Positions 43,615-47,314 of a stretch of 64,000 nucleotides of DNA are shown here, piece by piece. This DNA is from Isoalcanivorax indicus (lineage in GTDB: Bacteria; Pseudomonadota; Gammaproteobacteria; Pseudomonadales; Alcanivoracaceae). Numbering within the stretch: the first letter of the stretch is position 1; each line of letters opens with the position of its first letter. The DNA is taken from positions 1,116,001-1,180,000 of the forward strand of contig NZ_QGMP01000001.1 of the NCBI RefSeq assembly GCF_003259185.1, in the 5' to 3' direction. A program made the position numbers and the translations under genes. Under the pieces are notes generated by a model. The model did not search any database. It worked only from the letters and a program-made list of their open reading frames with translations, and had not been told where the DNA came from.

Positions 43615-43652
43615 CGGGTTTTTGGGGCCATTCTGTTGGGTTGGGTGGTTGT

Positions 43653-43771
43653 GGCCCTCGGGGGGCGGGTAAAGGGTTTCAGGACACGCCGTAAATACGT
43701 CCGTGTAGGCTTGCGTTCGGCATCCATGCCTCTCGACAGTCCTGAAACCCTTTACCCGCCCCCCGAGGGCC
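43653..43771 (+). repeat. Palindromic repeat family A, copy 1
   Basis: Two perfect 33-base complementary arms (43653-43685 and 43739-43771, starting GGCCCTCGGGGGGCGGG) enclose a 53-base loop containing GTTCGGCATCCATGCCTCTC. The same loop length and loop sequence occur in copies 2 and 3 with different arm sequences. The flanks GGTTGTGG and GTCACGCGCAGCCTG are shared with copy 3. It lies after the GMC gene, in a region without genes. Confidence 0.9.
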
Positions 43772-43863
43772 GTCACGCGCAGCCTGATCTTCAAGCTGGC
43801 AGGTGGCCGATGGTTTTGTTCCTCCTGCAGACTCTATAGCCACCAGGCTTGAAATCTCGCTCC

Positions 43864-43976
43864 GGCGTTGAGGCGGGGTGCGCCCTGTAGGGACATCTTT
43901 GGCCAGGGATGGCCAAAGAAAGAGCGCCCATGGACGGCTTGAGCGGTCCCGGAAGGGCGTACCCCGCCTCAACGCC
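43864..43976. repeat. Palindromic repeat family B
   Basis: Arms GGCGTTGAGGCGGGGTGCGC (from 43864) and its complement ending at 43976 pair over 23 bases with one mismatch. A nested stem TTTGGCCA-GGGA-TGGCCAAA lies at 43898-43917, and GGGAC/GTCCC pairs further in. The whole 113-base unit can fold into a branched cruciform. It is non-coding and lies between family A copy 1 and the gene ending at 44045. Only one copy is seen in this window. Confidence 0.75.
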
Positions 43977-44044
43977 TCTCTGCTGGAGGGTGACCCAGTG
44001 GGCTACGGCGAAACTTGCTTTGTCGAACGCAATGGAGGTGGCCC

Positions 44045-44740
44045 TCACGCCTCGGGCCGCAACACCATGGCCGCCATGTAGCGCGTGCTGAGTACGACTT
44101 GCTCGCCCTCCATATCGGCAAACACCCGCCGGATCACCCCATGCGTCGCCTTGCGCGTCGTCTCCATCGCCACATGCGCCATCTTCTTCATGATGGGCCC
44201 GAAACGCAGCAACCGCACCGGCTCCGCCAGATACCAGTGCAACGCAATATCCGTGATCTCGTGCAACGCCGCCGCCAACGTCGCCGCCGCCCTCACCGTG
44301 TCGCCACCCTCCGCCTGATCCCGCGCCCGCTCCAGCTGCCCGGCCAACGCCTCCGGTACCGGAAAAGCCACATACCAGCGCTCCTCACCCTCGCTGCCCG
44401 GCACCATGACACGCATCTGCTCCATGTAATCCGCCGCATCCTTGTGCTGCGGCAACGCCAGCTTGCGCGCCGCCCGCTTGACCACCATGCCCGTGGCCTT
44501 GCTGATGGTGTCCGCCGCCACCCGAATGACCCGCTGCATGCGCGGACTCAGGCCCACAAGCTCCGTCGGTTGCAGAAAGAACGCCGACAGCGATTCATCG
44601 ACGAACACCTCCATGATGGTTTCCAGCGTGTCCGGCTCCGGCCGTGCGTCCGCACGGGCCATACGCCGGATATAGCCATCGGTGGTCTGGTGCAGGTGAT
44701 CGCTGGAGCGGAATGCGATCTGTGGTTGTGGCTGGCTCAT
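44045..44740 (-). CDS. Conserved hypothetical protein
   Basis: A 231-residue protein from ATG 44740 (MSQPQPQIAFRSSDHLHQTT). It is mostly helical: DTLETIMEVFVDESLSAFFL, MQRVIRVAADTISKATGMVV, AATLAAALHEITDIALHWYL, and GPIMKKMAHVAMETTRKATH. There is no signal peptide or membrane helix, so it is probably cytoplasmic. No catalytic motif is recognised. It stands alone, flanked by palindromic repeats on its 3' side. Confidence 0.7.
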   Translation of the reverse strand: MSQPQPQIAFRSSDHLHQTTDGYIRRMARADARPEPDTLETIMEVFVDESLSAFFLQPTELVGLSPRMQRVIRVAADTISKATGMVVKRAARKLALPQHKDAADYMEQMRVMVPGSEGEERWYVAFPVPEALAGQLERARDQAEGGDTVRAAATLAAALHEITDIALHWYLAEPVRLLRFGPIMKKMAHVAMETTRKATHGVIRRVFADMEGEQVVLSTRYMAAMVLRPEA

Positions 44741-44954
44741 GCGGAGCGTCTCCAGATTGTTATTAGCGGGCAATCGTCGCAGAGTAGGGGGCCAGGACGT
44801 TGGCGCCAATGATCGTAACCGACGGTTTCGGCACAGTTCCGGTCAGGGGGTGACCGTAGCGCTTTTCTTCCCCGGCGGAATGCCGGATGATGCGGCCCCC
44901 GGAGAACGGGAAGCGCACCACAGGAAAGAGAGCCACAGGAATAAGGAGCCGCCC

Positions 44955-45434
44955 ATGCAATCCCTGACCGTGCCCGACAGCGAACAGCTGCAGCGCTGGC
45001 TGCGCCAGGCGGATGTGCCCTTTTACCTGTGCAATGACTGCCATGGTCTGCACCTGAGCGAATTGCAGGAGCGAGAAGGCCTGATCGACGCCCGCCTGTT
45101 TGTGGAAGAGCAGGGTGTCATGTTCACCGCCGAGCTGGAAATCCGCCCCTCCAGCCTGCTGATGGTGCATGCGGACCTCAGCCGCCTGAACATGATGTTC
45201 CCGGGCCTCAAGCTGTTTCTCGATATCAACGATGACACCCTGCCGCGTCTGATCGCCTGCGACCTGCTGTTGTGCGGGCAGGGTATCAACGCCGACCAGT
45301 TCGTCCACTTTGTCCAGTTCAGCGTTCAGGAATGCGGCCAGTTGCTGGATGAGTGCAGCCAGGTGGGCTGCCTGCTGTGGCCCGGCGAGGACGACACCCC
45401 GTCCAGCGCCCCTGCAGGAAACGCCCTCCACTGA
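44955..45434 (+). CDS. Hypothetical YbjN-like protein
   Basis: A 159-residue protein with an AAGGAG ribosome site. It begins MQSLTVPDSEQLQRWLRQAD and has a strand-rich core (VPFYLCNDCHGLHLSELQER, LFVEEQGVMFTAELEIRPSS) followed by helices (VHFVQFSVQECGQLLDECSQ). This alternation recalls the YbjN/type III chaperone-like fold, which binds partner proteins. Several cysteines are present (CNDCH, CDLLLC, CSQVGC) without a clear metal motif. It is followed 13 bases later by a 2-oxoglutarate oxygenase gene and may be in its operon. The fold call is tentative. Confidence 0.6.
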   Translation: MQSLTVPDSEQLQRWLRQADVPFYLCNDCHGLHLSELQEREGLIDARLFVEEQGVMFTAELEIRPSSLLMVHADLSRLNMMFPGLKLFLDINDDTLPRLIACDLLLCGQGINADQFVHFVQFSVQECGQLLDECSQVGCLLWPGEDDTPSSAPAGNALH

Positions 45435-45447
45435 ACCGATACCGCCA

Positions 45448-46107
45448 ATGATCCCGGTCACCCCCGCCGACCCGCACGCCAGTCCGGTGGAACAGCTCGT
45501 GGCCGGCCTGGCCGGCAACGGCTACGCCGCGATCCCCGCTTTCCTGCCCCCGGTACTGGTGCGTGCCCTGCGCCGCGAAGCGCTGCTGCGCGACCGGCGC
45601 GGGGAGTTCGTCGAGGCCGCCATTGGTGGCCCGGGCGAGCGGCAGCGTGATGCCAGCATCCGTGGCGATCGCACCTGCTGGCTGAACGGGACGACGGGGC
45701 CACAGCAGCGACTGCTGTCGCTGCTGGAGGACCTGCGGGTGCAGATCAATCGCGAACTGTTTCTGGGGCTGTTCGATCTGGAAGCCCATTTCGCGCTCTA
45801 TCCGCCAGGCGGTTTCTACCGCCGCCACCTGGATGCTTTCAAGGGCAACAATGCCCGGGTGGTGTCCATGGTCCTGTATCTGAATACCGGCTGGACGCCG
45901 GAAGACGGCGGCCAGCTGCGCCTCTGGCCAGACCCCGAGACACGCCTGCATGTTCTCGACGTGGCGCCGCGCGCCGGCACCCTGGTCTGTTTTCTCAGTG
46001 AACGCATTCCCCACGAAGTCTTGCCCGCCCGCCATGACCGCCTGAGCATCGCCTGCTGGTTCCGCCGCAACCAGCCGGACCTGCCGCTGGCTGTACTGGC
46101 CCCTTGA
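45448..46107 (+). CDS. 2-oxoglutarate/Fe(II)-dependent oxygenase (prolyl 4-hydroxylase type)
   Basis: A 219-residue protein from ATG 45448. The double-stranded beta-helix contains the iron ligands His127 and Asp129 in FYRRHLDAFKGNNARVVSMV and His189 in SERIPHEVLPARHDRLSIAC, with an Arg after it suited to 2-oxoglutarate binding. VLYLNTGWTPEDGGQLRLWP is typical of P4H-type enzymes. They hydroxylate proteins or small molecules in the cytoplasm. It follows the YbjN-like gene closely. The substrate is unknown. Confidence 0.88.
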   Translation: MIPVTPADPHASPVEQLVAGLAGNGYAAIPAFLPPVLVRALRREALLRDRRGEFVEAAIGGPGERQRDASIRGDRTCWLNGTTGPQQRLLSLLEDLRVQINRELFLGLFDLEAHFALYPPGGFYRRHLDAFKGNNARVVSMVLYLNTGWTPEDGGQLRLWPDPETRLHVLDVAPRAGTLVCFLSERIPHEVLPARHDRLSIACWFRRNQPDLPLAVLAP

Positions 46108-46110
46108 ACT

Positions 46111-46138
46111 CTTGAAAAAAAACCGGCCGCCACCATCT
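46111..46138 (+). promoter_or_regulatory. Candidate heat-shock (sigma-32) promoter for hsp20
   Basis: CTTGAA (46111-46116) and CACCATCT (46131-46138) are separated by 14 bases. They match the sigma-32 consensus -35 CTTGAA fully and -10 CCCCATNT at seven of eight positions, with correct spacing. It lies about 125 bases before the small heat-shock gene. Confidence 0.6.
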
Positions 46139-46211
46139 TCCTCCCTGTGACCAGAACAGCCGGCTGAAATGTCACACGACAGCTTTGATGACACAGGTTT
46201 AATGACAAATG

Positions 46212-46258
46212 TTGCTTGCGCCATGGGTGCCTGACGGGCCTGTGCGCGTAGAGGAGGA
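46212..46258 (+). promoter_or_regulatory. Possible ROSE-like RNA thermometer
   Basis: The hsp20 leader holds TTGCT (46212-46216), the ROSE signature that pairs with the ribosome site, and a strong AGAGGAGG site just before the ATG at 46265. A fold through GC-rich bases between them is possible. ROSE elements control ibpA-type genes in many proteobacteria; folding was not computed. Confidence 0.3.
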
Positions 46259-46264
46259 TGGATC

Positions 46265-46720
46265 ATGAATACCGAGTTTTCTCTGGCGCCGCTGTTTCGC
46301 CATACCGTAGGCTTTGACCGTTTCAATGAACTTCTGGACAGCGCGTTGCGCGCCGACCAGAGCAGCACGTTTCCGCCGTATGACATCATCCGCGAGGGTG
46401 AGGATCGCTACCGTATCGTGATGGCGGTGGCGGGCTATCGCCGCGAGGATCTGGAAATCGTGACGCGCGAAAATCAGTTGACCGTGCGTGCGCAGCAGGT
46501 CAAGGACGATGAGGCAGACGTGACGTGGCTGCATCGCGGTATTGCGCGGCGCAATTTCGAGCGTAATTTCCGCTTGGCTGATCATGTCTTTGTGGAGGGC
46601 GCGGACTTGCGTGACGGGTTGCTGGAGATTCGCCTGAAGCGCGAAATTCCTGAGGCGCGTCGGGCGCGGGTTATTCCCATTGATGGTGACGTGTCTGCTG
46701 GGCAGGATATCGAGCACTAA
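46265..46720 (+). CDS. Small heat-shock protein Hsp20 (IbpA family)
   Basis: A 151-residue protein. The N-terminal arm contains FSLAPLFRHTVGFDRFNELL, typical of IbpA/IbpB. The alpha-crystallin domain is YDIIREGEDRYRIVMAVAGY followed by LEIVTRENQLTVRAQQVKDD and FERNFRLADHVFVEGADLRD, ending with the strand GLLEIRLKREIPE. It would hold unfolding proteins in the cytoplasm for DnaK/ClpB. A sigma-32-like promoter and a possible ROSE thermometer lie upstream. It is bounded downstream by palindromic repeat copies 2 and 3. Confidence 0.93.
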   Translation: MNTEFSLAPLFRHTVGFDRFNELLDSALRADQSSTFPPYDIIREGEDRYRIVMAVAGYRREDLEIVTRENQLTVRAQQVKDDEADVTWLHRGIARRNFERNFRLADHVFVEGADLRDGLLEIRLKREIPEARRARVIPIDGDVSAGQDIEH

Positions 46721-46748
46721 GTTTTTTCCATCCTGATTGTTCGGTGGT

Positions 46749-46865
46749 GGCCCGCAGGGTCGGGCAAGGGCTTTCTGGACACCCCGTAAACCCGTCCCTG
46801 GGGGCTCTCGTTCGGCATCCATGCCTCTCGAAGGTCCAGAAAGCCCTTGCCCGACCCTGCGGGCC
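46749..46865 (+). repeat. Palindromic repeat family A, copy 2
   Basis: Perfect 32-base arms (46749-46780 and 46834-46865, starting GGCCCGCAGGGTCGGGCAAG) enclose a 53-base loop with GTTCGGCATCCATGCCTCTC. The loop resembles copies 1 and 3, but arm bases differ at many positions, always with matching changes on the other arm. It lies 29 bases after the hsp20 stop. Confidence 0.9.
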
Positions 46866-46987
46866 GTCACGTTCAGTGAGATTAACGAATTGCTTGCCAG
46901 CTGCTGGTTTGGTTCTTGCTCAACCCAGCCTACGAGGCGAACAAAACTTTCGGTTGGCTGAACGTTGTTAACCAGGCTGCGCGTGAC

Positions 46988-47106
46988 GGTCCTCGGGGGG
47001 CGGGTATGGGTTTTCTGGACCTTCGAGAGGCATGGATGCCGAACGAGAGCCTACATGGATGTATTCACGGCGTGTCCAGAAAACCCATACCCGCCCCCCG
47101 AGGACC
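46988..47106 (-). repeat. Palindromic repeat family A, copy 3 (inverted)
   Basis: Perfect 33-base arms (46988-47020 and 47074-47106, starting GGTCCTCGGGGGGCGGG) enclose a 53-base loop that, read on the minus strand, contains GTTCGGCATCCATGCCTCTC. It points the opposite way to copy 2, 122 bases away, and shares flanking words with copy 1 (GGTTGTGG and GTCACGCGCAGCCTG). Confidence 0.9.
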
Positions 47107-47314
47107 ACAACCACCACACCCCGAAAGAATGGACCACAACCACCGGGCTAATAACCCCCAGCTATGACCAAAATCTGATTATTCCAAACTGATCTAAAGC
47201 CACGCAGGCGTTTCACCCCACCTTGCCCCTACACTGGATCATGCTGAAGCAGTAAGCCTGCTGGCAGCCGTGCAGTCGCCCCCAGGCCAGAACCACACCA
47301 AGGAGGCGCTACCC
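47107..47314. other. Intergenic region before the 47315 gene
   Basis: About 208 bases without a gene. It contains an AT-rich patch (CCAAAATCTGATTATTCC near 47170) and CAAGGAGGCG as ribosome site for the next gene. No further palindrome copy is seen. Confidence 0.4.

What the first reader, a model, noticed from the sequence alone, without database searches (positions are those of the whole stretch)
43653..47106. Palindrome family with conserved 53-base loop and co-varying arms
Three copies (43653-43771, 46749-46865, 46988-47106) each have perfect arms of 32-33 bp around a loop of exactly 53 bases. Loop sequence is conserved (copies 1 and 3 differ at about 7 of 53 positions), while the arms differ between copies yet stay perfectly complementary. 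Compensatory change points to selection on a hairpin, or to arm-to-arm conversion. The flanks GGTTGTGG and GTCACGCGCAGCCTG are shared by copies 1 and 3. Copies 2 and 3 face each other 122 bases apart. This could be a non-autonomous mobile element, a single-strand recombination target or a structured RNA; I do not recognise it as a named family.
Basis: seen in the sequence. Interest (0 to 1): 0.78.

Follow-up and report, generated by a model that had tools for sequence, protein, structure and literature searches.

The report
Scattered RNA hairpins displaying paired CsrA-type sites
The three palindromes are copies of a widely scattered bacterial RNA element, a long stem holding up two small hairpins that look like landing sites for the global regulator CsrA, so the genome may carry dozens of built-in decoys for that regulator.

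Summary
The copies belong to a dispersed structured-RNA family: 68 cores in this 3.44-Mb genome, plus a sister subtype that includes a fourth window copy at 43864-43976. On one strand the loop folds into two small hairpins with GGA in each loop, 23 nt apart; hairpin 2 always reads CANGGANG, the CsrA/RsmA site, and only its two N positions vary (47 of 47 aligned copies). Stems covary strongly. In other gammaproteobacteria the arms differ entirely between genera, and G-U outnumbers A-C on the GGA strand (114:36 without selection of rows), which points to selection on RNA of that strand. One genome copy passes Rfam TwoAYGGAY, whose clan also holds CsrB; CsrA binding was already proposed for TwoAYGGAY (PMC4333381). 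New here: high copy number, divergent pairs, 3'-end placement, empty sites in sister species, free arms, and a breadth that Rfam misses (0 of 38 loci). CsrA binding and transcription are inferred, not shown. Best reading: dispersed CsrA-binding 'sponge' hairpins carried by slowly mobile intergenic repeats.

The parts
43628..43652 (.). outer flank of composite element 1, CCATTCTG...GGTGGTTGT type
   Evidence: sequence; similar motifs flank other type-A copies in the genome
43653..43771 (-). type-A hairpin, copy 1: 33-bp stem, 53-nt loop; the GGA-bearing strand is the minus strand
43721..43728 (-). CANGGANG site in hairpin 1 of copy 1 (CATGGATG)
43698..43705 (-). CANGGANG site in hairpin 2 of copy 1 (CACGGACG)
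43772..43863 (.). spacer of composite element 1 (92 nt, with its own inverted repeats)
43864..43976 (+). type-B hairpin: 31-bp imperfect stem; Rfam TwoAYGGAY match below gathering (33.5 bits, gathering 43, match 43857-43983)
43904..43911 (+). CANGGANG site 1 of the type-B hairpin (CAGGGATG)
43929..43936 (+). CANGGANG site 2 of the type-B hairpin (CATGGACG)
46728..46748 (.). outer flank of composite element 2, left
   Evidence: sequence
46749..46865 (-). type-A hairpin, copy 2: 32-bp stem, 53-nt loop; GGA strand is minus
46816..46823 (-). CANGGANG site in hairpin 1 of copy 2 (CATGGATG)
46793..46800 (-). CANGGANG site in hairpin 2 of copy 2 (CAGGGACG)
46866..46987 (.). spacer of composite element 2 (122 nt, with its own inverted repeats)
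46988..47106 (+). type-A hairpin, copy 3: 33-bp stem, 53-nt loop; GGA strand is plus
47031..47038 (+). CANGGANG site in hairpin 1 of copy 3 (CATGGATG)
47054..47061 (+). CANGGANG site in hairpin 2 of copy 3 (CATGGATG)
47107..47132 (.). outer flank of composite element 2, right (ACAACCACC...AGAATGG)

Best explanation
Each palindrome encodes one copy of a dispersed structured RNA. The long outer stem, whose sequence is free, closes a 53-nt cap that folds into two small hairpins; their loops show GGA in the CsrA/RsmA setting (hairpin 2 always CANGGANG, hairpin 1 mostly), 23 nt apart, so that one CsrA dimer could clamp both. When the GGA strand is transcribed (by read-through from a neighbouring gene or from a promoter inside the element), the stem should make the RNA nuclease-resistant and the cap should bind CsrA, so the copies together act as a distributed CsrA sponge or as CsrA-recruiting 3' UTRs. 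In this genome hairpins come largely as divergent pairs in composite elements (about 375 and 405 bp in the window) that sit just behind stop codons and spread slowly, with exchange of hairpins between sites. Shown: structure, covariation, strand bias, motif, distribution, placement, empty sites. Inferred: CsrA binding, transcription, the sponge role, the way of spreading.
For: GGA is invariant in both hairpins of 47 of 47 aligned type-A copies; hairpin 2 is CANGGANG in 47 of 47 with only the two N columns variable, hairpin 1 is CATGGATG in 38 and CA-GGA without the N in 9. All 9 aligned type-B copies hold CANGGANG twice. SELEX consensus RUACARGGAUGU, ANGGAN hexaloop, dimer bridging at 10-63 nt, best above 18 nt: PMC7652899 passages. 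Covariation in G000: 34 of 46 pairs changed on both sides, 99.4% of cells paired. Across gammaproteobacteria: 64 copies, 94.3% paired, 8 of 8 hairpin-1 pairs and 25 of 28 arm pairs doubly changed. Arms on the GGA strand, 79 sites not selected by stem and scored symmetrically: G-U 114, A-C 36, p 1e-10; without Xanthomonas 66 and 29, p 2e-4. TwoAYGGAY and CsrB share Rfam clan CL00106; a G000 copy passes the TwoAYGGAY cut-off. All 18 core-positive genomes of 398 carry csrA, 220 of 398 do overall. None of the 68 G000 cores has a GGA mismatch although 2 mismatches were allowed. Empty sites in sister species.
Against: No binding or expression data. The csrA association is confounded by phylogeny (within the class 104 of 137 genomes have csrA; p 0.005 without correction). 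The strand bias is weaker by distinct sequence contexts (53 to 32, p 0.03); an earlier count of 123 to 13 used rows picked by a stem score that tolerated G-U but not A-C. In G000 itself there is no bias (5 G-U, 6 A-C). The minimum-energy fold of copy 1 alone does not form both small hairpins, nor does that of the type-B hairpin cleanly. In the wider set the downstream gene runs against the GGA strand at 43 of 62 sites, so many copies would need their own promoter, and I identified none. 6 of 84 non-truncated wide-set copies lack GGA in hairpin 1 (list, counted by eye). Alcanivorax dieselolei already has other candidate CsrA sRNAs (CsrR1, CsrR2; PMC9788540 passages).
Confidence: 0.62

Rival explanations
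1. The element is a selfish non-autonomous mobile DNA (MITE or REPIN-like pair of hairpins). The hairpins serve a transposase or single-strand recombination, and any CsrA binding is incidental or helps it persist.
For: High copy number, two inverted hairpins per composite (20 of 20 pairs divergent; 22 of 22 two-core elements), presence/absence between sister species, exchange of hairpin subtypes and a collapsed hairpin at orthologous sites, no strand bias inside G000.
Against: Conservation sits in RNA-like features (two GGA loops, compensated inner stems, G-U over A-C), while the arms, which a transposase would have to recognise, are unrelated between genera. None of 9 Y1-transposase loci of the genus has a core. 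No target-site duplication recognised at the sites compared.
Confidence: 0.2
2. The hairpins are bidirectional 3'-end formers: transcription terminators or stem blocks against exonucleases between convergent genes, as proposed for BIME/REP repeats (recalled).
For: In G000 23 convergent, 19 tandem, 4 divergent of 46 elements with both neighbours called; 30 of the 42 convergent or tandem ones start within about 35 nt of a stop codon; in other organisms 24 convergent and 3 divergent of 62. Very stable stems (-85.9 to -92.7 kcal/mol on the GGA strand of copies 1-3).
Against: No U-run after the stem in the window copies. A terminator or exonuclease block does not need invariant GGA loops or a conserved 53-nt cap, and would act on both strands, against the strand bias.
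Confidence: 0.11
3. The cap binds a protein other than CsrA, and resemblance to CsrA sites is coincidental.
For: Binding was not measured. The 3' part of the cap (YTYRCRGCG in G000) is also conserved, which CsrA does not need.
Against: The variable positions of hairpin 2 fall exactly on the N positions of CANGGANG, TwoAYGGAY shares the CsrB clan, and an independent motif scan matched CsrA sites in TwoAYGGAY (PMC4333381, passages).
Confidence: 0.07

Closest known systems
Rfam TwoAYGGAY RNA (RF01731)
   Same: Two adjacent small hairpins with GGA loops on a longer stem; found in Gammaproteobacteria (PMC2864571 table row); one copy of this genome scores 51 bits against a gathering score of 43; the AGA/GAA internal loop in hairpin 1 of G000 type A fits the tandem-GA feature mentioned for it in PMC4333381.
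   Different: The window copies and 38 further loci (37 of other genomes) do not reach the gathering score. Loops here are ANGGAN rather than AYGGAY; long perfect arms of free sequence; tens of copies per genome; divergent pairs. I saw none of these described in the passages read.
CsrB/CsrC/RsmX/RsmY/RsmZ CsrA-sequestering sRNAs
   Same: GGA motifs in short hairpin loops, paired for a CsrA dimer; CsrB is in the same Rfam clan as TwoAYGGAY (CL00106; the other members were not checked).
   Different: Those are single sRNA genes with many sites each (about 18 CsrA subunits per CsrB, PMC7652899 passage); here two sites per copy, spread over many loci.
RsmU of Xanthomonas (PMC7694677)
   Same: RsmA-binding RNA from a 3' UTR with GGA motifs and no Rfam homologue (passages read).
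   Different: Reported as one locus, over 90% conserved and limited to Xanthomonas, four GGA motifs; not a dispersed repeat. I did not compare its sequence.
REP/REPIN and BIME repeats (recalled)
   Same: Dispersed intergenic palindromes, often as inverted doublets at 3' ends of genes.
   Different: Longer stem, conserved two-hairpin cap, no Y1 transposase neighbour found, arms of free sequence.

Membership tests
TwoAYGGAY RNA (RF01731) | covariance-model score at or above gathering (43 bits) | tested here: not met
   Window copies: best 33.5 bits, at 43857-43983. In G000 1 of 7 reported matches passes. 0 of 20 loci (19 of other genomes, 1 of G000) and 0 of 18 loci of named genomes.
TwoAYGGAY RNA (RF01731) | two neighbouring hairpins with AYGGAY-like loops | tested here: met
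   consensus structure and counts; loops are ANGGAN, so broader than AYGGAY; the single-sequence fold of copy 1 does not show both hairpins
CsrA/RsmA-binding RNA | ANGGA in the loop of a short hairpin | tested here: met
   hairpin 2 CANGGANG in 47 of 47 type-A rows; hairpin 1 CATGGATG in 38 of 47, CA-GGA in the other 9; stems supported by covariation
CsrA/RsmA-binding RNA | two sites spaced for one dimer (10-63 nt, optimum above 18; PMC7652899) | tested here: met
   GGA to GGA 23 nt in type A (columns 47 and 70), 25 nt in type B (columns 44 and 69)
CsrA/RsmA-binding RNA | genome encodes CsrA | tested here: met
   one csrA in G000; 18 of 18 core-positive genomes
CsrA/RsmA-binding RNA | RNA is transcribed and binds CsrA | not testable with these tools
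   needs RNA-seq, CLIP or band shift
REPIN / RAYT system | linked Y1 (RAYT) transposase gene with matching hairpins | tested here: not met
   0 of 9 PF01797 loci in 7 genomes of the genus carry the core within about 1.5 kb; genomes without R1 matches have Y1 genes as well
MITE | terminal inverted repeats with target-site duplication | tested here: inconclusive
   outer flanks CCATTCTG/AGAATGG recur, but no duplication was recognisable at the sites compared by eye

The most novel reading that the evidence does not exclude
A mobile, REP-like repeat family has turned into (or lives by being) a genome-wide CsrA buffer: dozens of separate 3'-end loci each emit nuclease-proof two-site CsrA decoys, so that total transcription, not one Csr sRNA gene, sets free CsrA. 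Hairpin arms are rewritten in both strands at once while the CsrA-binding cap is kept.
Probability: 0.33. Interest if true: 0.86.

Novelty: new variant of a known kind. Interest (0 to 1): 0.67.

Why it matters
CsrA control is usually described through one or a few sRNA sponges. If tens of dispersed hairpins also bind CsrA, models of CsrA titration in Alcanivorax relatives, Marinobacter, Microbulbifer, Stenotrophomonas, Xanthomonas and others miss many binding sites, and a class of 'junk' palindromes becomes part of a regulatory network. The family is nearly invisible to Rfam 15 in the loci scanned, so it is also an annotation gap, and its arms give a natural experiment on how long palindromes keep perfect complementarity.

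Tried and rejected
Plasmid collection by blastn with copy 1: no match. Rfam microRNA names are sub-gathering hits that long hairpins give, and were ignored. PrrB_RsmZ model in G000: nothing near the cut-off (best 20 bits, gathering 44; 8 of 14 control genomes also ring), so it says nothing. Y1 transposase link: rejected. Target-site duplications: none recognised. Promoter in the spacer: looked at by eye only, none convincing. Paper searches meant to find a dispersed CsrA-binding repeat: searches returned no paper; some searches returned lists (6, 1 and 275 papers, 6, 1 and 8 shown) in which I saw none. TwoAYGGAY occurs in 7 papers, 5 listed, of which I saw passages of three. Counts are lower bounds (32 candidates scored per genome). 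My gene calls come from a simple codon or length score, not a gene finder. Rows dropped: A1 used 47 of the 57 hairpins, A2 used 9 of the other 10 (one with a 30-nt loop call left out); A3 used 64 of 86 sites (truncated or stem score under 15 left out); one search assessed 70 of 86 sites (16 too near a locus end); A1 arms were trimmed to at most 33 nt.
Full report
1. The observation. The three hairpins are present at the stated coordinates with arms of 33, 32 and 33 bp and loops of exactly 53 nt. A fourth relative, with a 31-bp imperfect stem and a 51-nt loop, lies at 43864-43976 and scores 33.5 bits with the Rfam TwoAYGGAY model, whose gathering score is 43. The window is C1:1116001-1180000 of an unnamed 3.44-Mb genome, G000.

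2. A genome-wide family. BLAST with the loop returned 40 places, all it scored. A degenerate core pattern allowing 2 mismatches found 68 places, 67 without a mismatch and 1 with one; the reversed control found 0. The first segments fetched held 57 hairpins: 47 of type A (including the A' form with a 50-52 nt loop), 9 of type B, and one with a 30-nt loop call. In 20 of 20 adjacent pairs the strand bearing GGA points outward, away from a spacer of 60-192 nt; with the later segments 22 of 22 two-core elements are so arranged and 31 show one core. So copy 1 plus the type-B hairpin, and copies 2 plus 3, are two composite elements of one architecture.

3. Structure and motif. In the alignment of 47 type-A copies (A1) GGA is invariant in both hairpins. 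Hairpin 2 reads CANGGANG in 47 of 47, and only its two N columns vary. Hairpin 1 reads CATGGATG in 38; the other 9 lack the N (CA-GGA). Flanking stem pairs swap in concert, for example TACA..TGTA with CCCA..GGG. Counting on a stated structure gave 99.4% paired cells, 34 of 46 pairs changed on both sides, 381 doubly changed cells, 3 singly changed cells and about 11 unpaired cells; slid structures gave 34-50% paired. RNAalifold's own consensus shows the same two hairpins, but the minimum-energy fold of copy 1 alone does not show both. The 9 aligned type-B copies each hold CANGGANG twice. According to passages of a CsrA review (PMC7652899) the SELEX consensus is RUACARGGAUGU, the bound loop is ANGGAN, and one dimer bridges sites 10-63 nt apart, best above 18 nt. 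The spacing here is 23 nt in type A and 25 nt in type B.

4. Other genomes. The covariance model R1 matched 40 of 114 genomes, G000 included (per-genome counts are lower bounds). In the 30 loci fetched with it the hairpins have long arms, of different sequence in different genera, and the same two-GGA cap. Of 86 sites in them, 64 have a stem score of 15 or more, and 73 have (A)N(0-1)GGA in hairpin 1; of the 13 others 5 still have GGA after another base, 2 are truncated and 6 lack it (by eye). Arms are alike within Xanthomonas and unrelated between genera. In 64 aligned copies (A3) 94.3% of cells pair, and all 8 pairs of hairpin 1, of which the inner three never vary in G000, covary. Hairpin 2 and TTCACGGCGTGTC were part of the search pattern, so their conservation in A3 is imposed; hairpin 1 and the rest of the arms were not.

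5. Which strand matters. A first count in the arms of A3, read on the GGA strand, gave 123 G-U pairs and 13 A-C mismatches, but those rows had been chosen with a stem score that tolerates G-U and not A-C. Repeated on 79 of the 86 sites without stem selection, with symmetric scoring and the inner 22 pairs, it gave 114 G-U and 36 A-C (p 1e-10), 66 and 29 outside Xanthomonas (p 2e-4), and 53 and 32 by distinct sequence context (p 0.03). A purely DNA-level constraint would treat both alike, so the stem seems to be selected as RNA of the GGA strand; the signal is real but weaker than first counted. In G000 the count is 5 to 6: its arms are almost perfectly Watson-Crick, and 32 distinct arms among 47 copies differ by 30% on average against 15% for loops. 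Together with the near absence of singly changed pairs this points to joint rewriting of both arms (recombination between copies or template switching; inference). At orthologous sites of G005 arms or inner hairpins are exchanged as wholes.

6. Placement and movement. Of 53 G000 elements, 23 lie between convergent, 19 between tandem and 4 between divergent genes, 7 were at edges; 30 of the 42 convergent or tandem ones start within about 35 nt of a stop codon. In other organisms 24 are convergent, 19 tandem with both genes against the GGA strand, 16 tandem with it, 3 divergent, 3 appear inside a called gene and 5 at edges. The window elements follow a GMC oxidoreductase gene and an Hsp20 gene; the convergent gene at 44045-44740 has no Pfam match. 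Both elements are absent from sister species: behind hsp20 in G001, G004 and G006, which keep the same next gene, and in G002, which has another; and between the oxidoreductase and the convergent gene in G001 and G003. G001 and G003 carry the family elsewhere, while G002, G004 and G006 gave no R1 match. In the closest relative G005 element sequence was matched at 15 of 17 G000 sites tested, one site (762620) lacks it and one gave no match; hairpins were seen directly at 9 of 13 sites compared.

7. Link to CsrA. G000 has one csrA, about 3.3 kb left of the window. The core pattern hit 18 of 398 Pseudomonadota genomes, all 18 among 137 of the same class and 0 of 261 outside it. All 18 are csrA-positive, against 220 of 398 (p 1.7e-5; within the class 104 of 137, p 0.005). 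These p values ignore phylogeny. Rfam places TwoAYGGAY and CsrB in one clan, CL00106. Gardner and Eldai (PMC4333381, passages) already proposed that TwoAYGGAY RNAs bind CsrA. Weinberg et al. 2010 (PMC2864571, passages) list TwoAYGGAY as a probable RNA, probably not cis-regulatory; Rfam types it Cis-reg.

8. Membership. One G000 copy passes the RF01731 cut-off (51 bits), but the window copies and all 38 loci scanned at gathering (37 of other genomes) do not. I therefore call it a TwoAYGGAY-like, CsrA-site-bearing family and not a member by Rfam's own rule.

9. Verdict. A structured RNA element is very likely; CsrA as ligand is likely; a sponge role and slow mobility are reasonable inferences. 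The dispersed, paired, 3'-end architecture is the new part; I saw no paper describing it in the lists.

Noticed in passing
L012:1764, L023:1489, L039:479 (G000) and L078:2309 (G005): Four copies at different sites, of both subtypes A and A', carry nearly the same insert of about 90 nt in the GGA loop of hairpin 2 (GTGAGACAAGCGTCTTGCGACGCATGCG...). Either a second element that targets this hairpin or an extended RNA variant spread by conversion; G000 lacks it at the hsp20 site where G005 has it.
   Followed up: partly
L296 (G008 C1:94441-95606): Six cores in direct tandem with a period of about 227 nt on one strand, like a natural multi-site CsrA RNA.
   Followed up: partly
G060: A genome with 22 core matches has 9 csrA matches; amplification of both may be linked.
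   Followed up: no
G000 C1:755273 region and L023:1680-1710: Partner hairpins collapsed to bare arms without the loop, as expected from hairpin deletion during replication.
   Followed up: no
G000 contigs C2, C3 and C6: Cores lie within about 160 nt of contig ends (C2:8, C3:123, C6:104, C6:12414 of 12518), so the assembly seems to break at these repeats.
   Followed up: no
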